From positions 310,001-374,000 of the forward strand of contig NZ_VAUA01000005.1 of assembly GCF_005771405.1 (NCBI RefSeq): a stretch of DNA of 64,000 nucleotides, given 5' to 3'. The notes beneath the pieces were generated by a model. The model made no database searches. It was not told the DNA's origin and saw only the letters and a program-made list of their open reading frames with translations. The translations under genes were made by a program, and so were the position numbers. Source of the stretch: Parasedimentitalea maritima. GTDB lineage: Bacteria; Pseudomonadota; Alphaproteobacteria; Rhodobacterales; Rhodobacteraceae. This document shows positions 42,306-61,712 of the stretch, piece by piece. Positions within the stretch are counted from its first letter, which is position 1. Each line of letters starts with the position of its first letter.

Positions 42306-42335
42306 AGGCAGGAAGCGGACTTTGCAAAGTCGGGT
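42306..42335 (+). repeat. Dispersed repeat, right part (copy D)
   Basis: GGCAGGAAGC followed by the palindrome CTTTGCAAAG (42320-42329) and TCGGG. It matches the right end of copy A (55921-55946). Only the right part is present; the left part seen at 40413 is on the other side of the IS110 element. Confidence 0.55.
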
Positions 42336-42547
42336 CGATCAGGGTCCCTGCCCCGATGACAATGACCCGTTGCGGATATTGATGGAGTACCTGGCTCTGG
42401 AACAAATCTCCCGCAAAAGCGGACGTTCTTGAATTAGAGTTTTTTGACCGTCGTGGATCGCTGTTAGCCGTAACGAGTTTCCAAAACAGATATCGTTGCA
42501 TGCCAAGTTTCCTCTATCGGATCCGCGGAAAAATGAAACGATAGCGC
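42336..42547. other. Intergenic remainder downstream of the sugar operon
   Basis: About 210 bases between copy D and the stop of the altronate-dehydratase-like gene. Two overlapping minus-strand frames exist but lack start sites and family likeness. No terminator hairpin with a T-run was found on the minus strand. Confidence 0.3.
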
Positions 42548-44044
42548 CTAAAGAACGGCGCCAATTTGCCAAGGAACAAATTCAACTCCGCCAAACCCAA
42601 GATCTTCACTTTTTGAGTGCTGACCGCTGGCGATGGCTATAAGCGCCTCGAAGATTTGTTCTCCCTTTTCGACAAGAGATGCGCCTTCGGCGATGTCGCC
42701 GCAGTTGATGTCCATGTCCTCGCTCATACGCATGAACATATCAGAATTGGTTGCAATTTTGATGCCGGGTGCTGGCTTGTACCCCGAAACCGAGCCACGC
42801 CCAGTGGTAAAGGCAATCAAAGTGGCCCCGGACGCAACCTGCCCAGTGACGGAACAGGGATCGTAGCCTGGACTATCCATAAACACGAAGCCTTTGCTGG
42901 TCAGTAGCGCGCCATATTCGAACACCCCAGACAGCGGCGCTTGCCCGCTCTTGGCCACTGCGCCTAACGATTTTTCGAGGATCGTGGTCAGACCGCCACG
43001 TTTATTACCAGGGCTTGGGTTGTTATCCATTTTTGACCCATGGCGCGCGCAGTAAGCTTCCCACCAGGCGAGTTTGTCCACCAGGTCTTGCCCCACTTCT
43101 GCTGATACAGCGCGGCGGGTCAATAGGTGTTCAGCTCCGTAGATCTCGGATGTTTCAGACAGGATTGAGGTGCCACCTTGCTGAACCAGAAGATCAGACG
43201 CGACGCCGAGTGCCGGATTGGCGGTGAAACCGGAATAGCCATCTGACCCACCACATTGCATCCCCAGTACTAGTTCAGATACCGGTGCAGGGGCTCGTTT
43301 GGCTTGGTTAGCATAACTCGCAAGCGAGGTGAGGTGTTCGAGGCCCGCCTCTATGGTGCGCCGAGTTCCACCCATTTGCTGGATCGTCATGTAACGTAGT
43401 GCACCGTCCTGGGTAATCTTGCGATCACCTACCAATTCGGCCAGTTGCAGCACTTCGCAGCCTAGTCCTACCAATAGGATTCCGCCGAAATTCGGATGGC
43501 GCGCATACCCAGCAAGTGTCCGCAGCAGGAGGTCATAACCTTCACCTTGATTGGACATGCCGCAGCCACTGCTATGCACGATGGGCACAACGCCATCTAC
43601 ATTGGGGAATTCATCCAGAAGGCCGGACTTTTCCGCCGCTTCAGCAATGAAGCGGGCGACAGATCCGGAACAGTTCACTGATGTCAGGACGCCAATGTAA
43701 TTGCGTGTTCCAACACGCCCGTCCTCGCGGTGATAGCCCTCAAACGTGCGCAGTTGTTTGGGATCTGGCAGGGGGTGGGCAGCGGAACCAAAGGCGTAAT
43801 CCGCCACATGATCGCTCATGCTCATATTGTGACTGTGTACGTGAGAACCTGCCACTATGTTGCAATCTGCTTTACCGATGATTTGGCCGTAGCGGACCAC
43901 GTGATCCCCTTTGGCAATATCTGTCATGGCAACTTTGTGTGACCTTGGGATCGGCTCGATTGCAACGTCATCGCCTGCCGCAAGGGTTTGCAGAGTGATG
44001 GCAACGTTATCCACATCATTTAAAAGGAGTGTTTTGGATGACAT
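42548..44044 (-). CDS. UxaA-family sugar-acid dehydratase (altronate dehydratase-like)
   Basis: A 498-residue member of the altronate/galactarate dehydratase family, close in length to E. coli UxaA. Residues 1-90 form the SAF domain (AGDDVAIEPIPRSHKVAMTDI, GSHVHSHN). The C-terminal catalytic domain has YHREDGRVGTRNYIGVLTSVNCSGS, VPIVHSSGCGM, and QCGGSDGYSGFTANPALG, with the metal-binding Cys/His residues. It would turn D-altronate into 2-keto-3-deoxy-D-gluconate (KDG), the fourth step of L-galactonate use after the neighbouring 5-dehydrogenase and reductase. Some relatives dehydrate L-fuconate or D-arabinonate instead. It is the last gene of the importer operon, 3 bases after the dehydrogenase. 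Confidence 0.85.
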   Translation of the reverse strand: MSSKTLLLNDVDNVAITLQTLAAGDDVAIEPIPRSHKVAMTDIAKGDHVVRYGQIIGKADCNIVAGSHVHSHNMSMSDHVADYAFGSAAHPLPDPKQLRTFEGYHREDGRVGTRNYIGVLTSVNCSGSVARFIAEAAEKSGLLDEFPNVDGVVPIVHSSGCGMSNQGEGYDLLLRTLAGYARHPNFGGILLVGLGCEVLQLAELVGDRKITQDGALRYMTIQQMGGTRRTIEAGLEHLTSLASYANQAKRAPAPVSELVLGMQCGGSDGYSGFTANPALGVASDLLVQQGGTSILSETSEIYGAEHLLTRRAVSAEVGQDLVDKLAWWEAYCARHGSKMDNNPSPGNKRGGLTTILEKSLGAVAKSGQAPLSGVFEYGALLTSKGFVFMDSPGYDPCSVTGQVASGATLIAFTTGRGSVSGYKPAPGIKIATNSDMFMRMSEDMDINCGDIAEGASLVEKGEQIFEALIAIASGQHSKSEDLGFGGVEFVPWQIGAVL

Positions 44045-44047
44045 TAG

Positions 44048-45064
44048 TTATTCCTGCAGCTGAACTATGACTTTGATCAGATCCGCACGTTCCTCAGCTA
44101 GGCCGTTAAACTGGACGGCCAATTCATCCAGTGTGAGCACCGTGGAACACAGGGCATCTGCATCAATCAAGTTGTCACGAAAGGCTGACATGACCCAATC
44201 AAAGTCGGACTTTAATGCGTTGCGACTACCGATCAGGCGCATCTCGCGCTTGTGAAATTCTGGGTCGCTGAAGGTGATGTTGTCCTTAACTACGCTGACC
44301 AGAACATATGATCCGCCGTGAGCCACGGCCGGAAAACCTGCTTCGATTGCGCCGGCATGTCCGGTGGCATCAAACAAGACATCGTAACCTTCACCACCCG
44401 TCGCTTTGATTGCGGCTTCGATGCCTGTGTGTCCCATGTCGAAACCAAACTTATCCGAGGCCATGGCCAAGCGTTCAGGGCTGAGATCCAGCAACGTGAC
44501 GGTTGCACCTTTTAGGCGCGCAAACAAAGCTGTGCCGATACCGATGGGCCCCACGCCGGTTACCAGAACATTATCACCCTCGGACACGCCAGAACGTTGC
44601 ACCGCGTGCGCACCGATGGCCAGAAACTCGACCATGGCTGCTTGGATCGCTGACAAACCGTCTGCGGCATAGAGGTTGCCCGCTGGTACCGCCAGCTGGG
44701 GGATTAACCCGCCATCGCGGTGCACGCCCAAGACTTCGATTTTGTAGCAGCAGTTGGGCTTGTCACGCTTGCAGGCCCGGCACTCACCACATGTCAAATA
44801 GGGGTTTACCAGGACCAGATCACCTGCCGACCAGCCTTCTCCATCGCGCGCAACATGGCCGCTTAGTTCGTGACCGATGACCCGTGGATAGTTGAGAAAC
44901 GGGTGTTTTCCTTCGAGAATGTGATAGTCAGTCCCGCACAGACCCACGGCGCAGATATCAACCAACACCCAGCCATCTGGAACCTCGCTCACGACGGGGC
45001 GAGGTTCTATTGCAAAGGTTCCTGGTTTGACGACTGTACCTGCTCGCATTGTATTGGTGCTCAT
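44048..45064 (-). CDS. Zinc-dependent alcohol dehydrogenase, L-galactonate 5-dehydrogenase-like
   Basis: A 338-residue medium-chain dehydrogenase. Catalytic zinc ligands are visible in GLCGTDYHI (Cys38) and GHELSGHV (His-Glu). Structural zinc cysteines are in [15 protein letters not shown], and the NAD-binding Rossmann motif is [17 protein letters not shown] near residue 170. It resembles the LgoD (YjjN) and idonate/sorbitol dehydrogenase group, which oxidise C5 of aldonates. With UxaA, a UxaB-like reductase, and KDG kinase in the same locus, oxidation of L-galactonate to D-tagaturonate is the best guess. Its ATG overlaps the ABC ATPase stop by 4 bases (ATGA). Confidence 0.82.
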
Positions 45065-45846
45065 TTGGACTCACCTCGCGGTGCCCAGCCATCTGGCAAG
45101 GTGCCCTTGATGATGAGGCTCAGGATATCGTCCTTGTTGACATCCTCGATGTGGAAAGTTCCGACGTTGCGGCCCTTGTTCATCACCATCACGCGGTCAC
45201 ACAGGTCAAACACATCATGCATGTCGTGGCTGATCAGGAAGATGCCGATGCCTTCGTCTTTCAGGCGCAGCGTCAGATCTGCCACCATCGACGTTTCCGA
45301 TGGCCCAAGCGCCGCCGTCGGCTCGTCCATAATTAGAACTTTGGCTTGAAAGTAGATCGCGCGGGCAATGGCGATAACCTGTCGCTGTCCACCAGACAGC
45401 TTGGCCACGGGGTCCTTGAGGTTCTTGAAATTCGGGTTCAGCTGGCGCAGTGCGTCTTGCGCCTCGGTATGCATGCGTGCTTCGTCGAGGTTTCCGAAAC
45501 GGGTCTTAAGCTCGCGTCCGAGAAACAGGTTCTGCGCCGCATCCAGATGGTTGGCTAAAGCCAAGGTCTGATAGATTGTTTCGATACCGAATTTCTTGGC
45601 ATCATGCGGAGATTTAAGATCAGCCTCTTGGCCGTTCACATAGATCTCGCCGCCATTGGGTATCATTGCTCCGGACAGGATCTGCATGAGACAGGATTTT
45701 CCAGCCCCGTTGTGGCCCAATACACCGACGACCTCACCCGGATAAAGATCAACTGAGACACCTTCAACGGCATGAACACCGCCAAAATGTTTGTAGATCT
45801 CTGACATTTGCACCAGAGGGGTCTCTTGAGCGTTTGCGTCCAACAT
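45061..45846 (-). CDS. Sugar ABC transporter ATP-binding protein
   Basis: A 261-residue single-domain ATPase of the CUT2 (ribose/fructose-type, FrcA-like) family. Walker A is GHNGAGKS near residue 40; the signature motif is LSGGQRQ near 150; Walker B is [12 protein letters not shown] near 172; the H-loop is LISHDMHDV. It powers uptake together with the permease and binding protein encoded upstream. Having one ATPase domain instead of the fused double one of RbsA is usual in the FrcA branch. A strong hairpin separates it from the binding-protein gene. Confidence 0.92.
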
Positions 45847-45871
45847 TTTTCGTCCTATCGGAATCTAGAGT

Positions 45872-45901
45872 TGGGTCAGCGAACGTCAGTTCGCTGACCC
45901 A
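45872..45901 (-). terminator. Perfect 13-bp stem-loop after the binding-protein gene
   Basis: TGGGTCAGCGAAC / GTTCGCTGACCCA (45872-45884, 45889-45901) with loop GTCA. It lies 7 bases after the stop of the substrate-binding gene and 25 bases before the ATPase gene. It has no T-run, so it more likely protects the upstream mRNA end and lowers downstream expression than stops all transcription; this is inferred from similar importer operons. Confidence 0.7.
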
Positions 45902-45908
45902 GGCACAA

Positions 45909-46847
45909 TCAGTACAAAACGTTCTGTGCGACTGGGGTATCGATGTTGTCTTTTGTGACCATCACAACACCGGTGTCGATGAAGTTGGTGATCTCGTTGC
46001 CAGCCAGCAGATCAGCGATGGCATTCACACCCAGCTCACCCATCTGGAACGAGCCCTGAACGGCAGTCGACAAAAGGGTGCCGCTTTTGACCATGTCTTG
46101 CAGGTCCGCGTTGCCGTCAAAACCGATGGCAGTCAATTGGCCAGCTTTGCCTGCTTGCTCAATTGCGCGGCCCATGCCGATTGCTGTTGGTTCGTTTGCA
46201 CCAAAGATACCAACCAGCTTGTTTGCAGCTAGAATATCAGTGGTTTGGTTCAGTGCGGTTGCCATTTGCGACTGCGAGTAGAACGGGCCAACGATCTCGA
46301 TATCCGAGCTTTCACCGATATGTTTTACAAAGCAGCCAACACGGCCGATTTCTGAACCAACGCCAGCGACATATGACATCACGGCCACTTTGCCTGAGGT
46401 GCCGACAGAGTCGATCATCATCTGAGCAGCCTGTTCACCCGCTGCGCAGTTGTCTGTGGACAGGAAGGTTTGGTAGTACTTCTCGTTGCCTTCGGCTAGG
46501 CCACTATCAATGATAGCAACAGGGATGCCGCTTTCATATGCGCGCTTTACCACAGGGGCGAGTGCCTCTGGATCAGATGGCGCCAAAACTATGCCGGAAA
46601 CGCCGCGGTTGATTGCGTTCTCGACCAGGGCGACCTGATCTGCAATCGCAGATTCAGCGGCTGGGCCGTTGAATGTCATCGTGTGATCGCTGTGACCTTC
46701 AATAGCCGCTGTCGCGCCTTTGTTGACGTTCTGCCAGAAGCTGGAGTTCGTCGTTTTCACGATCACGGCGATCTCGCCGGCCGATGCGACTGTAGCTGCA
46801 GTTGCTAGGATGCCTGTAGCTAACGCTGTTGTCAGTAGTTTCTTCAT
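45909..46847 (-). CDS. Periplasmic sugar-binding protein of the ABC importer
   Basis: A 312-residue RbsB-like binding protein. The signal peptide is residues 1-23 (LLTTALATGILATAATVASA). The periplasmic-binding fold type I has EIAVIVKTTNSSFWQNVNKGA at the start of the mature chain, GVSGIVLAPSDPEALAPVV near 85, and LVGIFGANEPTAIGMGRAIE near 215. Two cysteines (in STDNCAAGEQ and GRVGCFVKH) may pair. It delivers a sugar, by context L-galactose, L-fucose or a related compound. It lies 42 bases downstream of the permease and is followed by a perfect stem-loop. Confidence 0.92.
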   Translation of the reverse strand: MKKLLTTALATGILATAATVASAGEIAVIVKTTNSSFWQNVNKGATAAIEGHSDHTMTFNGPAAESAIADQVALVENAINRGVSGIVLAPSDPEALAPVVKRAYESGIPVAIIDSGLAEGNEKYYQTFLSTDNCAAGEQAAQMMIDSVGTSGKVAVMSYVAGVGSEIGRVGCFVKHIGESSDIEIVGPFYSQSQMATALNQTTDILAANKLVGIFGANEPTAIGMGRAIEQAGKAGQLTAIGFDGNADLQDMVKSGTLLSTAVQGSFQMGELGVNAIADLLAGNEITNFIDTGVVMVTKDNIDTPVAQNVLY

Positions 46848-46889
46848 GGTTTCCTCCCGTTAAAACTAGTTCTTGGTGATTGAGTTTGG

Positions 46890-47903
46890 TTAGTTCCGGT
46901 TCCGGATTTGGTCGATGTAGACCGCGCCGATCACGACGATCCCGATGATGATTTGTTGAATAAAGGCAGAGGTGCCTGCCATGTTCAGGCCATTTCGCAG
47001 CACACCGATGATAAAGGCGCCGATCATGCTGCCTGAGATGCTGCCAACACCACCCATCAGCGAAGCGCCACCAATGACCGAGGCCGCAATGGCATCAAGT
47101 TCGTACATCACACCTTCGTTGGGCTGCACTGTGACAAGGCGTGACATCAGTACCATTCCGGCAAGTCCCGCCAGTGCACCTGAAGCGGTGTAGGCCCAGA
47201 TTTTGGTTCGGTCGACTTTTACACCGGAAAGGCGCGCTGCTTCTTCATTTGATCCGACTGAGAAGATGTGGCGACCAATCTGACGGCGCTGCAACAAGAA
47301 CCCGCCAATCAGTGCCATTACGACCAACAGGACTGCTGGATAAGGAATGCCTGGGAATATCACCTTGGGAAAACCATTGGCCTGCATTTCGACAATGCGG
47401 AAAAACGAGCCATTGCCCAGTTGTCCAAAGGCTTCGCCAAGGCGGCTGATAGGGGCTGCACCCGTCAATTGCAGTGCTACTCCACGCGCAATCATCATCA
47501 TGCCCAGTGTTGCCACAAACGGAGTAATCCGCAGTTTCGTTATTACAAGACCATTGATGAATCCGCAAAACGCACCGGCTAGAATTCCGAAAGCCATAGC
47601 TGGCATGACTGGGACGCCAGCCTTGATCGCCAGCCCGGCAACCACACCGGACAAGGCAAGGACTGAGCCGACGCTCAGATCAATGCCGCCGGTGATAATC
47701 ACCAATGTCATACCAATGGCCAGTAGCCCGATAACGGAGGTTTGCAGAAGAACAGTCAAACCGTTATTCACTGAGAGAAAGGCTGGACTGGTAAAGGAGA
47801 ACGCCAGTATCAGCAGCAGCAGTGTCAGTAGAGCTGACAGTTTGTGCAGGCTTGATCCGGTCGGCAAGAACCGCAATTTAGTGTTGCCATTAGTGTTGGA
47901 CAT
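46890..47903 (-). CDS. Sugar ABC transporter permease
   Basis: A 337-residue membrane permease of the RbsC/FrcC type, with about nine to ten hydrophobic segments. The conserved IGMTLVIITGGIDLSVGSVLALSGV stretch lies near residue 65, and LNGLVITKLRITPFVATLGM-like sequence (INGLVITKLRITPFVATLGM) near 120. The EEAARLSGVKVDRTKIWAY segment near 215 is the coupling loop toward the ATPase. The ATG at 47903 starts MSNTNGNTK after GGGGAG; the ATG at 47930 has no ribosome site. It is the first gene of the five-gene unit permease, binding protein, ATPase, dehydrogenase, dehydratase. Confidence 0.92.
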   Translation of the reverse strand: MSNTNGNTKLRFLPTGSSLHKLSALLTLLLLILAFSFTSPAFLSVNNGLTVLLQTSVIGLLAIGMTLVIITGGIDLSVGSVLALSGVVAGLAIKAGVPVMPAMAFGILAGAFCGFINGLVITKLRITPFVATLGMMMIARGVALQLTGAAPISRLGEAFGQLGNGSFFRIVEMQANGFPKVIFPGIPYPAVLLVVMALIGGFLLQRRQIGRHIFSVGSNEEAARLSGVKVDRTKIWAYTASGALAGLAGMVLMSRLVTVQPNEGVMYELDAIAASVIGGASLMGGVGSISGSMIGAFIIGVLRNGLNMAGTSAFIQQIIIGIVVIGAVYIDQIRNRN

Positions 47904-47978
47904 GGTTGTTCTTGCTCCCCGAAAAGACATAAGCTGTCTTTAATAATAATAAACATATTGGCGAGAAGTTGACCCGTC

Positions 47979-48005
47979 AAATGTTTTTAATTTTTTTGAA
48001 CATTT
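47979..48005. promoter_or_regulatory. Candidate GntR operator, site 1
   Basis: An inverted repeat AAATGTT...AACATTT (47979-47985, 47999-48005) with an A/T-rich centre, 74 bases upstream of the permease start and 38-50 bases upstream of the GntR gene. A similar dyad is at 51091-51119 between the other two divergent operons of the locus. Recognition by the local GntR protein is inferred. Confidence 0.55.
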
Positions 48006-48042
48006 CAAAAAAAACAGGTATAACGGGCCAACCGAGAGAGGA

Positions 48043-48960
48043 ATGATACGACCTATGGCAAGGACCAATACCCGCTTCGTTGAGGCATACAATGAACTCT
48101 TAAACCTTTGTGATCAATTGGAAGTTGGGGCGTATTTGCCGTCTGAAAATGCCTTGTCCGCCCAGTTGGGCGTTAGCAGAACCGTGATCCGAAGTGCTCT
48201 GACACGGCTGGATGACTGCTCCATTATTGCGCTCGATGGCCGTGAAAAAATCCTAAGGCGTCATTCGAATGCGGAAGATCGGTTGGAGGGGCCGCCCGTT
48301 TTGTTGGGAATCGAGGAACTGGAGAGCCGATTCCTAGACTGGGTTTTGCGTATGGATGTTCCGCCCGGTACCGTGCTGAATGTCGCGCAACTCTCTAAGG
48401 ACTTTTCTGTGGCGACCCATACCTTGCAGGAGTTCTTCTCGTCACTCAGCCGTTTTGGTATTGTCGTGCGCAGGCCGCGCGGAGGTTGGGTGCTGCTAGG
48501 ATTCACCAAGAACTACGCGGTGGAATTGTCAGATTTTCGAACCGTTTTGGAATTGAATTCCGTACGTCATCTTGCTGCCCTTCCACTGGATCACGAAATT
48601 TGGGCCCGTCTAGATAGTCTGGAACAGGAGCATTTGGATCTGTTGCAGCGCATTGACAAAGATTTCCATGATTTTTCACCCCTCGATGAAAAATTTCACG
48701 CTGTCATCAACAGTGTGGTCGTAAACCGGTTCGTCAAAGAGTTTCAAAAAATCATTTCTCTCGTGTTCCACTACCACTTTCAGTGGAACAAAACCCACGA
48801 GCGCGAACGAAACGAAGATGCCATTCGTGAGCATCTTGCGCTGATCGAGGCGCTGCGCAGTCGAGATGCAGATAAGGCTGAGGCGGCCGCGCGTCGCCAT
48901 CTTGCCACCTCTAAGCAAACACTATTGTCCTCGTTAGAGACCAATAGCCACGCGACCTAA
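48043..48960 (+). CDS. GntR-family (FadR subfamily) transcriptional regulator
   Basis: A 305-residue regulator. The winged helix-turn-helix occupies about residues 15-80 (LEVGAYLPSENALSAQLGVSRTVIRSALTRLDDCSI). The C-terminal helical FCD-type effector domain (FRTVLELNSVRHLAALPLDH, LDEKFHAVINSVVVNRFVKEF with metal-type His) reaches to the end. It is somewhat longer than most, with an extra middle part that looks like a second HTH-like segment (VAQLSKDFSVATHTLQEFFSS). Starts at 48043 or 48055 are both possible. It is divergent from the importer operon and convergent by 4 bases with the aldo/keto reductase gene. It likely controls the whole locus. Confidence 0.85.
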   Translation: MIRPMARTNTRFVEAYNELLNLCDQLEVGAYLPSENALSAQLGVSRTVIRSALTRLDDCSIIALDGREKILRRHSNAEDRLEGPPVLLGIEELESRFLDWVLRMDVPPGTVLNVAQLSKDFSVATHTLQEFFSSLSRFGIVVRRPRGGWVLLGFTKNYAVELSDFRTVLELNSVRHLAALPLDHEIWARLDSLEQEHLDLLQRIDKDFHDFSPLDEKFHAVINSVVVNRFVKEFQKIISLVFHYHFQWNKTHERERNEDAIREHLALIEALRSRDADKAEAAARRHLATSKQTLLSSLETNSHAT

Positions 48961-49937
48961 GTGGTGACAAAAGTCATTGCTGCGTCTGACAATTGTTTGT
49001 TGGCGGCATCAAGATTGCGTTGCAGCGAACTGACTTTGCCGGTTCCCAGCAAGACAGAGCAGGCCGCGGGATGATGCAGTGCAAATTGCAATGATGCCTC
49101 TGCCAAGGATAGGCCAACTGCTTTTGCGCTGTCCTGCAAGGCTGTCACTTCGTCTAATATTTCTTGTGAGGCTGGCGCATAGTCAAACCAAGCCCCCGGT
49201 TTTGGCCCGGTTGCCAGAATGCCTGAATTGAAGATCCCACCGAGCACCAAACTGGTGCCTTGCTGGGCACATAAGTCCAGCAACTCGGCTTCGGCCTCGC
49301 GGTCTAACAGGGTCAGTCGTCCCGCAAGCAGAATGACGTCTAATGGTGTCTGTTTCACCACGTCGATGCAGATTTGACTTTCGTTCACGCCAAGTCCGAT
49401 CGCTCCTATACGTCCGGCTTGCTTTAGGTCTTGCAGTGCAGACATGCCTGATCCCATCAGGTCTTCCATATGGCGAGCGCCGCTGGCTGCGCCGTGGGTG
49501 TAGTCGCCGATGTCATGCACAAACACAATCTCAACGCGGGAGGTTCCCAGCCGTTCGCAACTGCTCTCAAAGCTTTCTAGAATGCCGTCTGCTGAATAGT
49601 CATAGCGAACCGCATTTGGCAAAGGTTGAACAAATCCGTCGGCTTCGGCCAATTGAGGGCCAGGTGACAAGACCCGTCCCACCTTGGTGGACAACACATA
49701 GTCGTCGCGTGGTATATCCTTGAAAAAGTCGCCCATCCGTTGTTCGGACAAACCGCGCCCATAGTGGGGGGCCGTGTCAAAATAGCGGATTCCGGCGGAC
49801 CAGGCGTGTTGCAGGACATCGGTCACGTCGCTGTCACGAACGACATGGCCAAGATTGCCAAGGCTGGCACCGCCCAACGATAGAGACGTTACTGAGATAT
49901 CGGTTTTGCCGACGCAGTTTGTCTTAAGGGGCATCAC
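48957..49937 (-). CDS. Aldo/keto reductase, L-fucose / L-galactose 1-dehydrogenase-like
   Basis: A 326-residue aldo/keto reductase of the D-threo-aldose (L-fucose) 1-dehydrogenase group. The catalytic tetrad is visible: Asp in RYFDTAPHYGRGLSEQRMG (with Tyr), Lys in LSTKVGR, and His in VFVHDIGDYTHG. The C-terminal GTGKVSSLQRNLDAA binds the cofactor phosphate or adenine. Such enzymes oxidise L-fucose, L-galactose or D-arabinose at C1 to the lactone. This is the first step of the inferred pathway. It overlaps the mannitol-dehydrogenase-like gene by 4 bases and is its downstream partner. Confidence 0.85.
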   Translation of the reverse strand: MMPLKTNCVGKTDISVTSLSLGGASLGNLGHVVRDSDVTDVLQHAWSAGIRYFDTAPHYGRGLSEQRMGDFFKDIPRDDYVLSTKVGRVLSPGPQLAEADGFVQPLPNAVRYDYSADGILESFESSCERLGTSRVEIVFVHDIGDYTHGAASGARHMEDLMGSGMSALQDLKQAGRIGAIGLGVNESQICIDVVKQTPLDVILLAGRLTLLDREAEAELLDLCAQQGTSLVLGGIFNSGILATGPKPGAWFDYAPASQEILDEVTALQDSAKAVGLSLAEASLQFALHHPAACSVLLGTGKVSSLQRNLDAANKQLSDAAMTFVTT

Positions 49938-51061
49938 GCTGTTTCCTTATTATAGGCCACAATCTCGGTCAGAATTGGCTTGATAGAGTGGTCACCTTGG
50001 GCCTTGGCCCAGTCCAACATCGCAGCGATCCGGCGCGTTACCTTCTGGCTGTGGTTTTGCGAAATATCCGCAATCCGGTGATCCAGAAATGGATTTGAAA
50101 ACCGCTCTATTGTTGTGTCAACGTAAGGATCGAATTGATCCTCAAGCCCTGCCGCAACAAAGGCGGGCCTAACCTCGTTGTTCAGCACGTCTTTCAGGCT
50201 AGTCAGTTCGGTCGTATCCTGAACCAAATTTCGAACGAAAATGTCCTGTGAACCGCGTGCTCTCAACCATCGATCAGCCAGAAGCGTGTGACCAAGGTTG
50301 AGGATGAATAGCTTTAGAGATTCGATTTCGCCCAATGACGGAACAACTTGTACCGAGGGATGATCACAGGGTAACGTTATTCCCGGCTGATCCTCTATCG
50401 CCCAAAGCGCATAGGGTTCAGCCACAGCACCTGCAGGTTCGATTGGTTGCGACACAATCCGATCCACCAGTGAGTTCACCCAGACAACGTCACGGTCAAG
50501 ATAGTTGCGGAACTCAACAGGATCTTGTTCGGCCAACTGCATCACCCGGCGTTTCAGAACCGTTCCATTGTCTGCTATCAGCTCCATTGGCATGATCTGT
50601 ATAGGTGCAGCCCCCGCCGCAAAACGCAGGCGCAATAAGTGGGTCAGCTTGGCTGGATAGGACATGACCTGATCAAATTGCAAAGCCGAGTCTCTAGCAT
50701 TGGGCGCAAACCCAGCGTCCCCTGTGTTTGACAGAACAATCTGCGCTTCGTTCACAAAAATGCGCGCGATCTGCACCCAATCGCACTCAGTCGATAGTGC
50801 TCGGATGACGCTTTTGACTTCGATTGTTTCTTGCTGCCGCTGCCCACCTTTCAGACCTTCGATCCGCACTGGGTAAGACCCTATCAAGGCACCCAGACGC
50901 TTAGCTCGCGCTGGATTGCCAGAGCTTTGCACCACGGTAATCGGCCCAACATCCTGACCGGCCTCCATCGCCTGAGACAGGAATAAATCGGCATGGGCTT
51001 GCAAAAACCGGCTGGTACCAAACTGGAGGATAGGGGTGGTTCGCACGAATTTTCCTTTCAC
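49934..51061 (-). CDS. Mannitol dehydrogenase-family protein, tagaturonate reductase-like
   Basis: A 375-residue polyol-specific long-chain dehydrogenase. The N-terminal NAD motif is PILQFGTSRFLQAHADLFL (residues 10-28), the middle has LSNTGDAGF and MPMELIADNG (with the family's N-x-T and E-x-x-x-[DN]-N-G patterns), VNSLVDRIV near 175, and the catalytic-type Lys region LKLFILNLGHTLLAD near 255. At 375 residues it is shorter than E. coli UxaB (483) and mannitol 2-dehydrogenase. Reduction of D-tagaturonate to D-altronate is inferred from the neighbours. It is divergent from the lactonase operon. Confidence 0.78.
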   Translation of the reverse strand: MKGKFVRTTPILQFGTSRFLQAHADLFLSQAMEAGQDVGPITVVQSSGNPARAKRLGALIGSYPVRIEGLKGGQRQQETIEVKSVIRALSTECDWVQIARIFVNEAQIVLSNTGDAGFAPNARDSALQFDQVMSYPAKLTHLLRLRFAAGAAPIQIMPMELIADNGTVLKRRVMQLAEQDPVEFRNYLDRDVVWVNSLVDRIVSQPIEPAGAVAEPYALWAIEDQPGITLPCDHPSVQVVPSLGEIESLKLFILNLGHTLLADRWLRARGSQDIFVRNLVQDTTELTSLKDVLNNEVRPAFVAAGLEDQFDPYVDTTIERFSNPFLDHRIADISQNHSQKVTRRIAAMLDWAKAQGDHSIKPILTEIVAYNKETA

Positions 51062-51090
51062 AGGCGTTGACCGAGATCAGCACTTTACCT

Positions 51091-51119
51091 GAAATGTTTT
51101 TAATTATACAAAACAATTC
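51091..51119. promoter_or_regulatory. Candidate GntR operator, site 2
   Basis: An imperfect dyad GAAATGTTTT...AAAACAATTC (51091-51100, 51110-51119) around TAATTATAC, exactly 29-30 bases from the starts of both divergent genes. It shares AAATGTTTTTAATT with site 1 at 47979, which supports a common regulator. Confidence 0.55.
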
Positions 51120-51148
51120 GAGTCAAGTAGGCATGATGGGAACTTGAG

Positions 51149-52000
51149 ATGGTCGAGCCTGTAAAAATCGATGCACACCAGCATTTCTGGCAAATTTCGC
51201 GTGGTGACTATGATTGGATGACAGACGAGGTCGCGGACATCCGTCATGACATCCTGCCGCCAGACCTGTCGTCACTGATTGATCATCACGGTATTACAGG
51301 AACAGTTGTGGTTCAGGCTGCAGCGACCGTGGCCGAAACAGAGTTTTTGCTTGGATTGGCGGAACAAACCAATTTCATCAAAGGTGTTGTGGGGTGGGTT
51401 GATCTTGATGACATCGATGCGCCGCAGACCTTGGATCGTTTAATGCAATCCACTGCCTTCAAAGGCGTGCGGCCAATGCTGCAAGACATCGAAGATACCA
51501 ATTGGATTTCCCGGCCTAAGGTTAAAGCCAATCTCGTAGCGCTGGCGGAACGAGGACTGCGGTTGGATGCTCTTGTTGTGCCACGCCACTTAAAAGTCTT
51601 GGCTCAGGTGGCTAAGGAGCTGCCGGAACTTGCAATCGTCATCGACCATTGCGCCAAACCTGAGATTGCGGATGAGGCAGACGCTGGGGAAGCTTGGCGC
51701 GATGGCATGGCCTGTTTGGCCGAACTGCCTAACCTTATGTGCAAAATCTCGGGCCTCGCCAATGAAGCCGGGTCTGGGTGGGGCGTAGAGCAATTGCAGC
51801 CCGTTGTTGATCATGTCCTGCGTCAGTTCGGCGCTGACAGGATTATGTGGGGCAGCGACTGGCCGGTCTTGAACCTTGTCGGTGATTACGATCGATGGCG
51901 CGCAGTTTCTGCACAGTTGTTACAAGGGTGTCCCGACCAAGATCGTGCAGCAATCTATGGTGGCACTGCTGTTAAGTTTTATGGATTGGAATTTGACTAA
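51149..52000 (+). CDS. Amidohydrolase-family lactonase (L-fuconolactonase-like)
   Basis: A 283-residue TIM-barrel hydrolase of the amidohydrolase-2 family. The metal-binding DAHQHFW lies at residues 6-12. VVQAAATVAETEFLL near 52, RLDALVVPRH near 140, and the active-site VIDHCAKPEI and IMWGSDWPVLNL near 164 and 231 follow. Close relatives open L-fucono- or L-galactono-1,5-lactone, also L-rhamnono-lactone. It would convert the product of the aldo/keto reductase to the aldonate. Its stop overlaps the start of the kinase gene by one base. It begins the second divergent operon of the locus. Confidence 0.87.
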   Translation: MVEPVKIDAHQHFWQISRGDYDWMTDEVADIRHDILPPDLSSLIDHHGITGTVVVQAAATVAETEFLLGLAEQTNFIKGVVGWVDLDDIDAPQTLDRLMQSTAFKGVRPMLQDIEDTNWISRPKVKANLVALAERGLRLDALVVPRHLKVLAQVAKELPELAIVIDHCAKPEIADEADAGEAWRDGMACLAELPNLMCKISGLANEAGSGWGVEQLQPVVDHVLRQFGADRIMWGSDWPVLNLVGDYDRWRAVSAQLLQGCPDQDRAAIYGGTAVKFYGLEFD

Positions 52001-53241
52001 TGACTTATCGCGTTGTCTGTATAGGCGAACCATTGGCCGAAATCTCGCGCCAGAAACCCAAACTAAGTGTCGGGTTTGGTGGTGATACTCTCAATACCGC
52101 AATCTACTGCGCGCGCGAAGTTCAGGGGCAAGATGTAGCAGTTCATTATGTCACTGCGGTTGGCCAAGATGTGCTTTCCAACAGCGTGGTCGAATTGATG
52201 CAAAGCGAGGGCATTGGCACAGACTATGTCTCCCGCGACCCACACCGTCAGATCGGAATCTATGCCATCCAAAATGACGAACGGGGCGAGCGCAGTTTTC
52301 ACTATTGGCGCGATGCATCTGCCGCACGTGAGATGTTCAAGTCCGAGACATCGCTGCATCTGGAAGCCATTAAGGCGGCAGATCTTGCCTATCTATCGGG
52401 CATCACACTGGCGATCCTGACGCAAGACGCGCGGGACCGGCTCTGGATCGCTCTGGCAGAGCGCCGCAAGTCAGGACTCCAGGTGGCGTTTGACTCCAAC
52501 TATCGGCCCAAACTGTGGGAAACACCTGAGATCGCCCGTCGTGAAATAGCCCGGTTCTGGGAAATTTCAGATATCGCTCTTCCGTCAGAAGAAGATGAAT
52601 CCGATTTATTCGGAGACAGGGACAATGCGGCAATTGTTGATCGTATCATGACTTCTGGGGCAAAAAAGGGTGCCTTAAAATGTGGAGCAGATGGACCTGT
52701 TTCTTTGCCTCTCTCGGTGAAGACCCAGGTTTTTGCAGCAGCCGAAACTGTTGTTGATACAACAGGTGCAGGTGACAGTTTCAATGGCGCGTATCTGGCT
52801 TCGATTGTTTGCAAAAAGACGCACAATACGGCCCTGGCATCAGCACATGATCTGGCCTGCCGCGTAGTCGGTCAGCAGGGCGCGATCTTGCCAAAGACCC
52901 AGTCTGTGACGCCGCAACGCATGGGCAGTGTGATCCAGCTCAAACCCGAGCACCTTGATGAATACAAACGCCTTCATGCGGATGTCTGGCCGGGTGTTTT
53001 ACAGCGGCTGCGTTCGTCTAACTTCAGCAACTATTCGATTTATCTGAAACATCCAGAATGTCTGATGTTCGGGTATTTTGAATACACGGGCAGTGACTTT
53101 GCGGCTGATAACGCTGCCATCGCCGCCGATCCAATCACCAAAGACTGGTGGGCGGTCTGTGGCCCAATGCAAGAGCCGTTCGAGACACGCGCCGATGGCG
53201 AGTGGTGGGCAGAGATGGAAGAGGTCTTCCATCTGGACTAG
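52000..53241 (+). CDS. KDG kinase-like sugar kinase fused to a rhamnose/fucose mutarotase domain
   Basis: A 413-residue two-domain protein. Residues 1-305 are a PfkB kinase like 2-keto-3-deoxygluconate kinase: GFGGDTLNTAIYCAR near 27, and the catalytic loop VVDTTGAGDSFNGAYLA near 250 with the catalytic Asp. Residues 307-413 form an L-rhamnose/L-fucose mutarotase-type domain (RMGSVIQLKPEHLDEYKRLH, VWPGVLQRL, NYSIYLKHPECLMFGYFEY, DPITKDWWAVCGPMQEPF). No stop or frameshift lies between them. The kinase would make KDPG from KDG; the mutarotase would interconvert anomers of the incoming sugar. The mutarotase is usually a separate small protein, so the fusion is unusual. Confidence 0.88.
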   Translation: MTYRVVCIGEPLAEISRQKPKLSVGFGGDTLNTAIYCAREVQGQDVAVHYVTAVGQDVLSNSVVELMQSEGIGTDYVSRDPHRQIGIYAIQNDERGERSFHYWRDASAAREMFKSETSLHLEAIKAADLAYLSGITLAILTQDARDRLWIALAERRKSGLQVAFDSNYRPKLWETPEIARREIARFWEISDIALPSEEDESDLFGDRDNAAIVDRIMTSGAKKGALKCGADGPVSLPLSVKTQVFAAAETVVDTTGAGDSFNGAYLASIVCKKTHNTALASAHDLACRVVGQQGAILPKTQSVTPQRMGSVIQLKPEHLDEYKRLHADVWPGVLQRLRSSNFSNYSIYLKHPECLMFGYFEYTGSDFAADNAAIAADPITKDWWAVCGPMQEPFETRADGEWWAEMEEVFHLD

Positions 53242-53296
53242 CGTGCTGCCGCTCTGTCTGCGCGGCTGGTAGAACTCTCAGTATAGAAATGGATTT

Positions 53297-54049
53297 ATGA
53301 TGGCTCAACTTGAAGGACGACTTGCAGGAAAGACGGCACTGATCACGGCTGCCGGGCAAGGCATAGGCCGCGCCACCGCTGAATTGTATGCCCTGCAAGG
53401 GGCAACGGTAATCGCTACGGATGTGAACGATGCGTCTCTGAAGGAATTGGAGGTCGTGGATGGCGTGTCTGCGGTGAAACTAGATGTCACTGACGCTCAG
53501 GCTGTCAAGGACGTGCTCGGCCAAGCTGGCCCGCTGGATGTCCTGTTCAACTGCGCAGGTGTTGTGGCCAATGGCACAATCCTGGAGTGCTCCAAAGAGG
53601 ACTGGGATTTCAGTTTTAACCTGAACGTGACGGCCATGTTCCAAATGATCCAGACCGCACTGCCTGCAATGTTGGAGAATGGTGGCGGGTCGATCATCAA
53701 TATGTCCTCCGTCGCGTCGTCGATCAAAGGCGTGCCAAACAGATTTGCTTACTGCGCCTCTAAGGCAGCGGTAATTGGACTGACCAAATCTGTGGCTGCC
53801 GACTACATCAAACAGGGAATTCGGTGCAATGCGATCTGTCCTGGAACGGTTGATAGCCCCTCGATGCATGGACGGTTGCGCGCAACTGGAGACTACGAAA
53901 GCGCCCTTGCGGCATTTATCGACCGGCAGCCTATGGGCCGCATTGGCAAAGCCGAAGAAATCGCGTCGTTGGCCTTGTATCTGGCAAGTGATGAAAGCGC
54001 ATTCACGACAGGTCAGACACATGCCATCGATGGCGGTTGGTCGGTTTAA
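53297..54049 (+). CDS. Short-chain dehydrogenase (2-keto-3-deoxy-L-fuconate 4-dehydrogenase-like)
   Basis: A 250-residue classical SDR. The cofactor motif is TAAGQGIGRAT near residue 17, with NAD preference suggested by the Asp in VIATDVND. NCAGVV near 93, the catalytic Ser in INMSSVAS near 138, and Y-x-x-x-K in FAYCASKAAV near 151 complete the set. It resembles the BDH2-like group, in which some members oxidise 2-keto-3-deoxy-L-fuconate or -L-rhamnonate at C4. It lies between the kinase fusion and the FAH gene, as expected for a branch that ends in pyruvate and lactate. The start may also be the second Met. Confidence 0.83.
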   Translation: MMAQLEGRLAGKTALITAAGQGIGRATAELYALQGATVIATDVNDASLKELEVVDGVSAVKLDVTDAQAVKDVLGQAGPLDVLFNCAGVVANGTILECSKEDWDFSFNLNVTAMFQMIQTALPAMLENGGGSIINMSSVASSIKGVPNRFAYCASKAAVIGLTKSVAADYIKQGIRCNAICPGTVDSPSMHGRLRATGDYESALAAFIDRQPMGRIGKAEEIASLALYLASDESAFTTGQTHAIDGGWSV

Positions 54050-54069
54050 CGAAAGGAAATTGGGAAGAG

Positions 54070-54918
54070 ATGAAACTACTTCGTTTTGGAGACCGCGGCG
54101 CCGAACGCCCCGGCATGGTGGATGCGGATGGTATTATACGTGATCTGTCGTCAGTGCTTGAAGATGTCGCTGGCGATGCGCTGGGCGACGAACAGATTGC
54201 AAAATTGCGCGCGATTGACCCATCGACGCTGCCCATAGTTGCTGCGGCAACGCGGATAGGTGCCTGCGTAGGGCAAGTCGGAAAATTCATCTGCATCGGC
54301 CTGAACTATTCTGACCACGCCGCTGAAGCTGGGATGGCGCTTCCTGATGAACCCGTGGTGTTTTTTAAAGCAACCTCGGCCATCTCCGGGCCATATGACG
54401 ATGTCGAGATTCCACGTGGGTCGGTTAAAACCGACTGGGAAGTTGAATTGGGCGTGGTTATCGGTAAGGCAGCTAAATACGTCAGTCGCGAGGATGCGTT
54501 GAGCCATGTCGCGGGCTACTGCGTTGTAAATGATCTGTCTGAACGTGACTTTCAATTGCACCGCTCTGGCCAGTGGGTAAAGGGCAAGTCCTGCGATACC
54601 TTTGGGCCAATCGGCCCTTGGCTGGTGACACGAGACGAGGTCGAAGATCCGCAGAACCTAGACATGCATCTTGAAGTTAACGGACGTCGCTATCAGGACG
54701 GCTCTACTTCGACTATGCATTTCGATGTGGCGACGGTCATATCACACCTGTCCCAATTCATGAGCCTTCAACCGGGCGACGTCATTTCAACAGGTACTCC
54801 TCCGGGGGTGGGTATGGGGCAAAAGCCTGAAACTTACCTGAAAGCGGGTGATCGCATGACGCTGGGTATTTCTGGCCTCGGCGAACAATCCCAGAATGTC
54901 AGGCCCAGCGAATATTGA
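54070..54918 (+). CDS. FAH-family hydrolase (2,4-diketo-3-deoxy-L-fuconate hydrolase-like)
   Basis: A 282-residue fumarylacetoacetate hydrolase-family protein. The family opening is MKLLRFGDRGAERPGMVDADG. The core has FICIGLNYSDHAAEAG near 70, the metal-binding Glu in DWEVELGVVIGK (E-x-E type) near 130, a conserved Asp in NDLSERDFQ near 160, and GDVISTGTPPGVGMG near 236. In L-fucose and L-rhamnose routes such enzymes cleave the 2,4-diketo acid to pyruvate and L-lactate. The ATG at 54070 follows GGAAG; an upstream in-frame start at 54037 overlaps the SDR gene and is rejected. It is the last gene of the operon. Confidence 0.85.
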   Translation: MKLLRFGDRGAERPGMVDADGIIRDLSSVLEDVAGDALGDEQIAKLRAIDPSTLPIVAAATRIGACVGQVGKFICIGLNYSDHAAEAGMALPDEPVVFFKATSAISGPYDDVEIPRGSVKTDWEVELGVVIGKAAKYVSREDALSHVAGYCVVNDLSERDFQLHRSGQWVKGKSCDTFGPIGPWLVTRDEVEDPQNLDMHLEVNGRRYQDGSTSTMHFDVATVISHLSQFMSLQPGDVISTGTPPGVGMGQKPETYLKAGDRMTLGISGLGEQSQNVRPSEY

Positions 54919-54951
54919 GGACATAGGTGCCCTTATTTAAGTCGTTCAAGC

Positions 54952-54976
54952 AGTCCCGTATCTCCTATATGGGATT
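54952..54976 (+). terminator. Stem-loop at the end of the lactonase operon
   Basis: AGTCCCGTAT and ATATGGGATT (54952-54961, 54967-54976) pair over ten positions in RNA, allowing G-U pairs, with loop CTCCT. It lies 34 bases after the FAH stop. There is no T-run, so terminator activity is only likely. Confidence 0.45.
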
Positions 54977-54994
54977 GCTATGGCTAGAGGCTGA

Positions 54995-55122
54995 GTGCCA
55001 CCCACGAAGGTCCGCTTTTCCCAAAACTTATTTTTCAGGCGCGAGGACGAAAGTGATGACTTCCCACTCAACCTGGATGATCTGCTGCATGAACCGGATA
55101 TAGAAATGAATGTCGCGTTAGG
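54995..55122 (+). pseudogene. Possible coding scrap cut by the IS30 element
   Basis: One plus frame reads NLFFRREDESDDFPLNLDDL and LHEPDIEMNVA up to the left end of the IS30 remnant, then continues only into IS sequence. The composition looks protein-like, but no family is recognised and the 3' part is missing. It may be the beginning of a gene disrupted by the insertion, or chance. Confidence 0.25.
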
Positions 55123-55878
55123 GCTGTGGTTTCAACGGGTCGCTGCAGCACAGGCTCCAAATTTCTCTGCTGGTGTCATGTATTGCAAGGTCTTTCTTGG
55201 CCGCTCGTTGAGTTGGCGGGCGATTGCGCTGAGTTCGGCTTGACTGAAGCCTGATATATCAGTGCCTTTGGGGAAGTATTGCCTGAGAAGCCTGTTAGTA
55301 TTTTCATTGCTGCCTCTCTGCCAAGGTGATTGCGGGTCGCAAAAATAGACGTCGATCTTGGTGGCCATGGTGAAAGTGCGGTGTGCCTCCATCTCTGACC
55401 CACGATCCCAAGTCAGCGATATGTAGAGCCCCTTGGGAAGCTTGCGCGCCTGTTTAACGAGGGCGGTGATGACGCTTTGGGTGTCCTTGTTCTCGATCTT
55501 CGCCAGCATCACAAAGCGGGAACGGCGCTCCACCAGCGTGGCGATGATCGCTTTAAGATCCGCGCAATGGCGCGAAACGAACGCTTGGCAGCAAGGCCAC
55601 GAGAGATCTCCTCCCGTTCCATCAAGGTCAGAGCAAGACGGGATCTGGTGCGAGCTGGTGGTCGGATGCCTCCTGTCACCGCAAGGTGGGGGAAAATCGA
55701 TGATGAAGCGCGATTAAAACAACGCCCAATGGAACTCATCGACTCTCCGCGCTGCCAGAGATCCCACATCTCCGACTTCTGTTTGTCTGTGTAAAATGTC
55801 CGCGTCCGATACTTCATGCCTAACACTCCATCTTTCCAAAAAGACTAAAGTGTTGCGTCGATCTGTTGAAACCACAGC
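55123..55878 (-). mobile_element. IS30-family insertion sequence, internally deleted
   Basis: The ends are inverted repeats: 55123-55147 begins GCTGTGGTTTCAAC, and 55854-55878 ends GTTGAAACCACAGC, with 21 of 25 positions matching. The element is 756 bp, compared with more than 1 kb for complete members. It carries a broken transposase gene. Its right end abuts a dispersed repeat copy (copy A), so it probably jumped into that repeat. No target duplication is obvious. Confidence 0.85.
55132..55826 (-). pseudogene. IS30-family transposase, internal deletion and frameshift
   Basis: The N-terminal part (55509-55826) has the helix-turn-helix region (KYRTRTFYTDKQKSEMWDLW, then RSFRAIARILKRS). The C-terminal part (55132-55533) has ERRSRFVMLAKIENKDTQSV, LTWDRGSEMEAHR, CDPQSPWQRGSNENTN and LNERPRKTL, which carry the last D-x-E residues of the IS30 catalytic triad. 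The two parts are in different frames. About 100 residues of the middle, including the first catalytic Asp (normally in HWEGDLI), are missing. The gene cannot make an active transposase. Confidence 0.9.
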
Positions 55879-60903: not shown

Positions 60904-61006
60904 ACTTTGCAAAGTGCGAAAACTGTGCATAGCTGCCGTTGGACCTCGGCGCAACGCACTCCCGCTTTCAACCCTTCTACGACATTCGTGTTGGGCGCAG
61001 CATAAC
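60904..61006 (-). repeat. Dispersed repeat, copy B
   Basis: Read on the minus strand: ATGCTGCGCCC, AATGTCGTAGAAGGGTTG, CCAACGGCAGCTATGCACAG, then ACTTTGCAAAGT (60904-60915). It shares the order and spacing of the conserved blocks with copies A and C, but its middle has diverged. Confidence 0.65.
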
Positions 61007-61631: not shown

Positions 61632-61712
61632 ACTTTGCAAAGTTCACTGTCTTGCGCATAGCCGCCGTTGGTGGTGATCGCATCTAATGGCCGGTTCCAG
61701 CCCTTTCTAGAC
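61632..61712 (-). repeat. Dispersed repeat, copy C
   Basis: Read on the minus strand: TAGAAAGGGCTGGAACCGG, CCATTAGATGCGATCACC, ACCAACGGCGGCTATGCGCA, then AACTTTGCAAAGTT. It is the closest relative of copy A. Confidence 0.75.

What the first reader, a model, noticed from the sequence alone, without database searches (positions are those of the whole stretch)
42548..54918. One locus that fits joint catabolism of L-galactose and L-fucose
The genes supply a CUT2 importer, an aldose 1-dehydrogenase, a lactonase, an L-galactonate 5-dehydrogenase-like enzyme, a tagaturonate reductase-like enzyme, a UxaA-type dehydratase and a KDG kinase. In that order they form a complete route from L-galactose to KDPG. 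An SDR and an FAH hydrolase in the same operon match the end of the non-phosphorylating L-fucose route. L-fucose is 6-deoxy-L-galactose, so the first two enzymes and the importer could serve both. Established knowledge: each family's usual reactions and the E. coli L-galactonate route. Inference: that they act together here, on sugars from red-algal (porphyran, agar) and brown-algal (fucoidan) polysaccharides. No separate L-fuconate dehydratase of the enolase family is present; UxaA may serve or it lies elsewhere.
Basis: partly seen in the sequence, partly recalled or inferred. Interest (0 to 1): 0.78.

Follow-up and report, generated by a model that had tools for sequence, protein, structure and literature searches.

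The report
Algal-sugar breakdown cassette in marine Roseobacter
A marine bacterium carries a compact, apparently movable set of twelve genes that most likely lets it eat L-galactose, with two added genes that probably let it eat the related seaweed sugar L-fucose too; the individual steps are known elsewhere, but this combination and one fused enzyme look like a new variant.

Summary
The core (CUT2 importer, aldo/keto reductase, lactonase, LgoD-like and UxaB-like dehydrogenases, UxaA, KDG kinase) fits oxidative L-galactose catabolism; a KDPG aldolase lies elsewhere in the genome. SDR-FAH match the end of the non-phosphorylating L-fucose route; the SDR keeps 11 of 12 probed residues, including the one reading the C6 methyl. 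SDR-FAH is an add-on: five fusion relatives lack it there, and it joined L-galactose-type loci at least twice, at different places. No enolase-type L-fuconate dehydratase was found in the genome, and three relatives' L-fucose-type loci hold UxaA as the only dehydratase type found, so UxaA probably does both dehydrations. Three copies of one putative operator sit in the two divergent promoters and nowhere else in the window. Joint L-fuconate/L-galactonate loci and UxaA-type L-fuconate dehydratases are already in print. Verdict: partly supported; new variant of a known kind.

The parts
42308..55126 (.). whole portable cassette (conserved block; flanks differ in relatives)
   Evidence: blastn against L010 (94.6%) and L012 (92.4%): one block 42308-55126 / 42308-55098, no long match in the flanks fetched
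42548..44044 (-). UxaA/GarD-family dehydratase (D-altronate; proposed also L-fuconate), four conserved-type Cys at 125/161/196/264
   Evidence: Pfam GD_AH_C 325.6 bits; galactarate dehydratase model 399 bits, far below its 731 cut-off; Cys spacing; tree
44048..45064 (-). zinc alcohol dehydrogenase, LgoD/RspB-like: proposed L-galactonate 5-dehydrogenase
   Evidence: NF007489 160 bits (cut-off 376); PDB best RspB 4ilk
45061..45846 (-). CUT2 sugar ABC ATPase
   Evidence: RbsA model 213.5 bits, below cut-off
45909..46847 (-). CUT2 substrate-binding protein
   Evidence: closest PDB chain 4wut 421 bits
46890..47930 (-). CUT2 permease
47935..47955 (+). putative operator copy 1 (2 mismatches)
47982..48002 (+). 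putative operator copy 2
   Evidence: similar in relatives
48043..48960 (+). GntR/FCD regulator
48957..49937 (-). aldo/keto reductase: proposed L-galactose 1-dehydrogenase
   Evidence: top five PDB hits are L-galactose dehydrogenases, 72-85 bits; clade of L-galactose loci
49934..51061 (-). short UxaB-like polyol dehydrogenase: proposed tagaturonate reductase
   Evidence: NF002969 167 bits (cut-off 359)
51095..51115 (+). putative operator copy 3
51149..52000 (+). amidohydrolase-family aldonolactonase
   Evidence: L-fucono-1,5-lactonase model 219 bits (cut-off 400); PDB 4dlf group
52000..53241 (+). fusion: KDG kinase (residues 4-300) plus L-fucose-mutarotase-like domain (307-412)
   Evidence: mutarotase 7byw 154 bits versus YiiL 34.5 bits; in-frame in 8 further loci
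53297..54049 (+). SDR, L-2-keto-3-deoxyfuconate 4-dehydrogenase-like
   Evidence: 11 of 12 probed positions identical to H. huttiense enzyme
54037..54918 (+). FAH-family 2,4-diketo-3-deoxy-L-fuconate/rhamnonate hydrolase
   Evidence: NF053535 423 bits (cut-off 500); PDB 8gsr 322 bits

Best explanation
One co-regulated, portable catabolic cassette. Core: L-galactose enters by the CUT2 importer, is mutarotated by the domain fused to the kinase, oxidised by the aldo/keto reductase to the lactone, hydrolysed to L-galactonate, oxidised at C5 to D-tagaturonate (LgoD-like), reduced to D-altronate (UxaB-like), dehydrated to KDG (UxaA) and phosphorylated to KDPG, which an aldolase elsewhere in the genome cleaves. 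Added arm: L-fucose is oxidised to L-fuconate, dehydrated by the same UxaA to 2-keto-3-deoxy-L-fuconate, oxidised at C4 by the SDR and cleaved by the FAH hydrolase to pyruvate and L-lactate. A methyl C6 cannot take the kinase's phosphate, which is why a second exit is needed. Shown: genes, domains, residues, comparative genomics, shared promoter motif. Inferred: every reaction, the sugars, that the GntR protein binds the motif, and that one reductase, lactonase and dehydratase serve both sugars.
For: Core gene set kept together with diverged sequence in relatives. The reductase's top five PDB hits are L-galactose dehydrogenases. Hexuronate use has its own locus in this genome: split UxaA beside UxuA, KduD, KduI and UxaC, the last four over NCBIfam cut-offs, so this UxaA is not simply the galacturonate enzyme. 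SDR residues incl. W252 (roles from PMC11199699). SDR-FAH joined L-galactose-type loci at least twice (AU p 6.0e-6 for FAH, 1.45e-4 for SDR). Loci with UxaA, reductase, SDR and FAH but no LgoD, UxaB, FucD, IlvD/EDD or other enolase-type dehydratase match at E <= 1e-7: L275, L277, L296; none of the last three dehydratase types is in the window or in the 11 Rhodobacterales joint loci probed either. A UxaA-family D-arabinonate dehydratase also acts, weakly, on D-altronate, L-fuconate and L-galactonate; D-altronate and L-galactonate share its C2-C4 configuration (PMC6336799, passages). Operator motif 3 sites, 0.19 expected, 0 of 100 shuffles. Neorhizobium plasmid locus L295 holds FucD, SDR, FAH, mutarotase, UxaA and an LgoD-like gene together.
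Against: Reductase and lactonase are of the L-galactose-locus clades, not those of L-fucose loci; LguA does not accept L-fucose (PMC12632266). FucD is rare anyway in these genomes (full-length in 1 of 9, namely the genome the query came from, and 2 of 20; three assemblies appear to be in both lists), so its absence is weak evidence. An IlvD/EDD-type L-fuconate dehydratase elsewhere in the own genome was not searched for. No NCBIfam cut-off is met in the tables shown for the locus. The mutarotase also sits in loci without SDR-FAH, so it does not by itself point to L-fucose. The SDR family also takes 2-keto-3-deoxy-L-galactonate (kcat/Km 5.3-fold lower, PMC11199699). The PMC6336799 enzyme's side activities were small (12% D-altronate, 5.6% L-fuconate, 2.4% L-galactonate; kcat/Km for D-altronate about 6,700-fold below D-arabinonate). 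Two of the joint loci (G390, G129) show no reductase or lactonase match in the stretch fetched.
Confidence: 0.52

Rival explanations
1. Single-sugar locus: everything serves L-galactose. UxaA also dehydrates L-galactonate directly to 2-keto-3-deoxy-L-galactonate, and SDR-FAH cleave this to pyruvate and L-glycerate, a phosphate-free bypass beside the LgoD-UxaB-kinase route.
For: Reductase and lactonase are L-galactose-locus type; L-KDFDH accepts L-KDGal (PMC11199699) and an L-galactonate dehydratase of the UxaA family is mentioned as unpublished data in PMC6336799.
Against: SDR and FAH of the window clade group with those of a FucD locus (L118) and of a UxaA-type locus without LgoD/UxaB (L275); the methyl-reading Trp is kept; of 23 family loci (window not counted) with LgoD and UxaB matches, 14 lack SDR-FAH matches in the stretch fetched, 8 have them and 1 has weak ones, so the bypass is not a general need (such genes may lie elsewhere: all 19 genomes have a FAH relative).
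Confidence: 0.25
2. L-galactose core plus a decayed or partial fucose module: SDR-FAH act on 2-keto-3-deoxy acids made by other loci (L-fuconate, D-arabinonate), with no L-fucose entry here.
For: No fucose-type reductase in the locus; SDR-FAH are separable from the core.
Against: The block is conserved as one unit with SDR-FAH inside in two near relatives and, at 76%, in Alg231_04; ORFs intact.
Confidence: 0.13
3. Ordinary hexuronate (galacturonate) or L-rhamnose locus misread.
For: UxaA, UxaB-like and RhaM-family domain names; FAH model named for rhamnonate.
Against: A separate hexuronate locus with its own UxaA lies at C23:206003; none of the 12 ORFs hit a UxaC family; mutarotase domain is L-fucose-type (154 versus 34.5 bits).
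Confidence: 0.05

Closest known systems
Halomonas HL-48/HL-93 and Chromohalobacter L-fucose/L-fuconate/L-galactonate loci (PMC5507952, section 12 read)
   Same: lgoD, uxaA, uxaB (or uxaF) beside L-fuconate/L-fucose genes including COG1028 and COG0179; shared use and likely co-regulation proposed
   Different: TRAP importer proposed for the acids, where here the importer is CUT2; no kinase-mutarotase fusion mentioned in that section
L-galactose pathway of Phocaeicola vulgatus (Hobbs 2014; seen only as cited in PMC12632266, paper not held) and Luteolibacter lgu (PMC12632266, passages)
   Same: L-galactose to L-galactonate, D-tagaturonate, D-altronate, KDG, KDPG
   Different: no SDR-FAH arm in the Luteolibacter passages seen; its KDG kinase is outside the cluster and PPi-using
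Non-phosphorylating L-fucose pathway, route 3 (PMC11199699, abstract and passages)
   Same: mutarotase, dehydrogenase, lactonase, SDR, FAH
   Different: enolase-type FucD replaced, on this reading, by UxaA; genes merged with an L-galactose locus
D-altronate dehydratase family enzymes in L-fucose/L-galactose routes (Watanabe 2019, title only, in the reference list of PMC11199699; PMC6336799 section 8 read)
   Same: UxaA-family proteins assigned to L-fuconate or L-galactonate dehydration (gene context, unpublished data)
   Different: there a two-subunit L-fuconate dehydratase in Paraburkholderia; here a single chain, possibly shared by both sugars

Membership tests
Oxidative L-galactose pathway (P. 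vulgatus/Luteolibacter type) | complete set dehydrogenase, lactonase, LgoD, UxaB, UxaA, KDG kinase in one locus | tested here: met
   (family level; curated cut-offs not reached)
Oxidative L-galactose pathway (P. vulgatus/Luteolibacter type) | KDPG aldolase in the genome | tested here: met
   PF01081 three matches over cut-off; the one at C23:190003 passes the eda cut-off and follows edd
Oxidative L-galactose pathway (P. vulgatus/Luteolibacter type) | enzymes active on L-galactose and L-galactonate | not testable with these tools
   needs assays
Non-phosphorylating L-fucose pathway, route 3 | L-KDF 4-dehydrogenase with R-T-R-R ligands and hydrophobic 252 | tested here: met
   R148 T183 R192 R214 W252 all kept; L189 is M
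Non-phosphorylating L-fucose pathway, route 3 | 2,4-diketo-3-deoxy acid hydrolase | tested here: met
   (best PDB hit 8gsr, the rhamnonate analogue; NCBIfam below cut-off)
Non-phosphorylating L-fucose pathway, route 3 | enolase-type L-fuconate dehydratase FucD | tested here: not met
   galactonate-dehydratase-like, two DgcA-like and enolase only; a UxaA-type substitute is proposed
Non-phosphorylating L-fucose pathway, route 3 | reductase and lactonase of the L-fucose-locus clades | tested here: not met
   window rows lie in the L-galactose-locus clades; substrate range unknown
Non-phosphorylating L-fucose pathway, route 3 | L-fucose mutarotase of FucM type | tested here: met
   7byw/7byu 154 bits, as a fused domain (sequence only)
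Joint L-fuconate/L-galactonate locus (Halomonas type) | lgoD, uxaA, uxaB with COG1028 and COG0179 in one locus | tested here: met
   PMC5507952 section 12
Joint L-fuconate/L-galactonate locus (Halomonas type) | TRAP importer for the acids | tested here: not met
   CUT2 ABC importer instead

The most novel reading that the evidence does not exclude
A single UxaA-type dehydratase is the branch point of two sugar routes: D-altronate from L-galactose leaves as KDPG through a kinase physically fused to the mutarotase that acts on the incoming sugar, and L-fuconate from L-fucose leaves as pyruvate plus L-lactate. The cassette was assembled repeatedly by adding SDR-FAH to an L-galactose locus, with UxaA in place of FucD, and in the window's group it moves between genomic sites as one block.
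Probability: 0.35. Interest if true: 0.6.

Novelty: new variant of a known kind. Interest (0 to 1): 0.45.

Why it matters
L-galactose and L-fucose are major parts of red- and brown-algal polysaccharides (established knowledge). In the listings of my literature searches I saw no description of a Roseobacter locus for both; PMC5507952 reports an L-fucose pathway in one Rhodobacteraceae genome. If right, this names genes that can be looked for in marine genomes and gives a clean test of how one dehydratase and one promoter set can join two sugar routes; the repeated joining of SDR-FAH is a natural experiment in pathway assembly.

Tried and rejected
Galacturonate reading: rejected as main function because a separate hexuronate locus with its own UxaA exists. 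L-rhamnose reading of the RhaM domain: set aside on 154 versus 34.5 bits. FucD elsewhere in the genome: searched and not found. A structure of the binding protein to reach its closest solved relative: model too poor (mean pLDDT 42.1), not searched further; that 4wut carries D-fucose is my recall only, and one search found no paper naming it. Fusion in print: one search found no paper with its three terms; the listing showed none on it. The own genome's second FAH (66%, C20:142520) lies about 0.5 kb from a xylulokinase gene, with no SDR of this kind in the 18 kb fetched, and was left. The ORF-based neighbourhood map was dropped for a tblastn map because spurious long ORFs hid genes. In one search I included G216, which was not among the UxaB-marker genomes listed; it is counted in the 20. 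Rows dropped in trees: UxaA L202 (cut copy of L010), L237 and L239; AKR under 38% and lactonase under 40% identity, and L202, L011, L016 as duplicates.
Full report
OBSERVATION. Scores are family-level: in the NCBIfam tables shown (best 25 per protein) no locus protein reaches a curated cut-off. The assembly is 4,852,500 bases in 23 contigs, completeness 100. The window's genome shares its genus with G312, whose contig C39 has the length of Zongyanglinia huanghaiensis NZ_WQLV01000009.1, so the host is a Roseobacter-group bacterium near that species.

The kinase ORF 52000-53241 has a second domain: Pfam rhaM at residues 307-412. Its closest solved chains are L-fucose mutarotases (7byw/7byu, 154 bits), far ahead of YiiL (34.5 bits). 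Of 79 distinct loci kept (the best 80 of 140 candidates), 8 match the fusion at full length (residues 1-412 or more), all Rhodobacterales; 4 of 394 genomes sampled in the family have it. In the other kept loci the match is to the mutarotase part, at times with some kinase tail, or to the kinase part (L018, L019). In G097 (L207) kinase and mutarotase are adjacent but out of frame. A GntR/FCD regulator gene lies between the two divergent promoters. The motif TGTTTTTAATTNNNNNNAACA (up to 2 mismatches) occurs three times in 64 kb, all in those two promoters; 0.19 expected, no shuffle of 100 reached three. I chose the motif after reading the promoters, so the count is descriptive; similar sites stand in the same promoters of relatives.

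CORE PATHWAY. The reductase's five best PDB hits are L-galactose dehydrogenases (72-85 bits). The lactonase is nearest the L-fucono-1,5-lactonase model. UxaA has four cysteines spaced 36/35/68 (39/35/68 between the conserved Cys of PMC6336799). A KDPG aldolase gene follows an edd gene at C23:190003. The genome has one other UxaA, a split one in a hexuronate locus: its neighbours pass NCBIfam cut-offs for mannonate dehydratase, KduD, 5-dehydro-4-deoxyglucuronate isomerase and glucuronate isomerase; a fructuronate-reductase-like gene there does not.

SDR-FAH IS AN ADD-ON. In the 8 fusion loci, SDR-FAH follow the fusion in L010, L011 and L012; in L013-L017 there is no FAH match and only SDRs of 29-35% identity in L013. 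With the UxaB-like gene as marker, 31 of 394 family genomes and 5 of 385 class genomes (own counted in both) match. SDR-FAH sit on the other side of the locus, next to UxaA, in G266, G339, G138, G301 and G390, and in G129 with the mutarotase between. In G389 a second contig shows LgoD-UxaA-SDR-FAH (L278). With own, G312 and G201 this makes 9 of 31 marker genomes with adjacent SDR-FAH; G265 has weaker matches (47-52%) further away. G390 and G129 show a different importer and no reductase or lactonase match in the stretch fetched. All 19 genomes have a FAH relative somewhere (E <= 1e-80), so co-location, not presence, is the signal. Trees put the window's SDR and FAH with those of Octadecabacter's FucD locus (L118) and of G094's separate locus (L275), away from the G266-type clade. 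Forcing window-type and G266-type rows into one clade is rejected: p-AU 6.0e-6 (FAH) and 1.45e-4 (SDR). I tested 9 rows; joint rows L285, L286 and L287 were left out; the groups follow gene position, but the test was run after the tree was seen.

WHICH DEHYDRATASE. PF13378 gives four matches in the own genome: a galactonate-dehydratase-like protein, two DgcA-racemase-like proteins and enolase (named by eye). The Octadecabacter FucD has as named PDB relative L-fuconate dehydratase 1yey (556 bits; its top hit 4ip4, 803 bits, bears a general name). It matches at full length only in its own genome among 9 (the other eight give partial matches of at most 33%), and in 2 of 20, both with FucD inside a joint locus. 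Five of those 20 had any match at E <= 1e-20; three are partial, 33-36% identical. FucD is thus rare in these genomes and its absence alone says little. More telling: L275 (G094), L277 (G097) and L296 (Azospirillum B510) hold UxaA (69, 67 and 53%), reductase, SDR and FAH with no match (E <= 1e-7) to LgoD, UxaB, FucD, an IlvD/EDD-type dehydratase or the own enolase-type dehydratase (L277 is a 16-kb contig, and the SDR there has V in place of W252). Of 18 relatives' loci and the window probed, FucD occurs only in L118, L281, L282 and L295, and the IlvD/EDD query matches none. In the UxaA tree L275 and L277 fall outside the L-galactonate-only clade (100/99), but branching among the other groups is poorly supported.

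The reductase tree splits 8 rows from L-fucose or FucD loci from 29 rows of L-galactose-type and joint loci (100/100); three of the 29 are from Hyphomicrobiales plasmids. The lactonase tree does the same (5 against 21, 100/99). The window is in the L-galactose clades. Octadecabacter, G094 and G097 have reductases of both clades. So the first two enzymes may be L-galactose-specific. PMC12632266 (passages) reports no activity of LguA on L-fucose, while a Paraburkholderia aldo/keto reductase takes D-arabinose, L-fucose and L-galactose (PMC6336799, passages). Both outcomes are possible.

SDR RESIDUES. Against the Herbaspirillum enzyme, 11 of 12 probed positions are identical, L189 being M. R148, R192 and R214 bind the substrate carboxylate and W252 the C6 methyl group (PMC11199699, abstract and passages). 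That enzyme prefers L-KDF over L-KDGal 5.3-fold and over D-KDG 105-fold.

PORTABILITY. Only the block 42308-55126 is shared with Z. huanghaiensis (94.6%) and, to 55098, with P. denitrificans (92.4%); the flanking stretches fetched show only short repeat-like matches (up to 198 bases). The left flank of P. denitrificans is a contig end (94 bases), so that side was not tested there. An IS110-type transposase (41054-42067) and an integrase-core ORF (55132-55533) flank the block in the window; neither had a match in the relatives' flanks. GC is not unusual (53.3% against 53.8%).

PRIOR ART. Joint L-fucose/L-fuconate/L-galactonate loci were described in Halomonas, with a similar L-galactonate locus in Chromohalobacter (PMC5507952, section 12 read). 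UxaA-family L-fuconate and L-galactonate dehydratases are stated from gene context and unpublished data in PMC6336799 (section 8 read) and in the title of Watanabe 2019, cited in PMC11199699; that paper is not held. This locus is thus a new variant: sugar importer plus first steps, the kinase-mutarotase fusion, and repeated assembly.

ALGAL LINK. Paracoccus liaowanqingii's plasmid locus has a sulfatase-like and a GH16 gene (Pfam 22.7 bits against cut-off 22) beside it, and P. seriniphilus's a sulfatase; the other plasmid records read with annotation list none in the stretch shown. The own genome has five sulfatase matches, all on other contigs. The polysaccharide source remains inference.

Noticed in passing
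41054-42067 and 55132-55533: An IS110-family transposase and a short integrase-core ORF flank the cassette, whose edges (42308, 55126) mark the end of DNA identity with near relatives.
   Followed up: partly
L010 about 233-332 and 13096-13195; window 60904-61003 and 61632-61731: Similar short repeats lie at both edges of the cassette in Zongyanglinia and again near 61 kb in the window; possibly a dispersed repeat used in recombination.
   Followed up: no
56246-60631: A 1461-aa protein with RTX calcium-binding repeats and bacterial Ig/cadherin-like domains lies just downstream.
   Followed up: no
L118 (Octadecabacter ascidiaceicola genome G008): A separate L-fucose-type locus has an importer ATPase and permeases unlike the window's, a second enolase-family protein, a standalone mutarotase, SDR, FAH and FucD, while the same genome has an L-galactose-type locus (L017) elsewhere.
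   Followed up: partly
L294 (Paracoccus liaowanqingii plasmid): A FucU/RbsD-family protein stands where relatives have the RhaM-type mutarotase: apparent non-orthologous replacement.
   Followed up: no
L119 and L125: SDR and FAH relatives flank an IlvD/EDD-type dehydratase of about 600 aa (NF009560, over cut-off), perhaps a third dehydratase type for this kind of route.
   Followed up: partly
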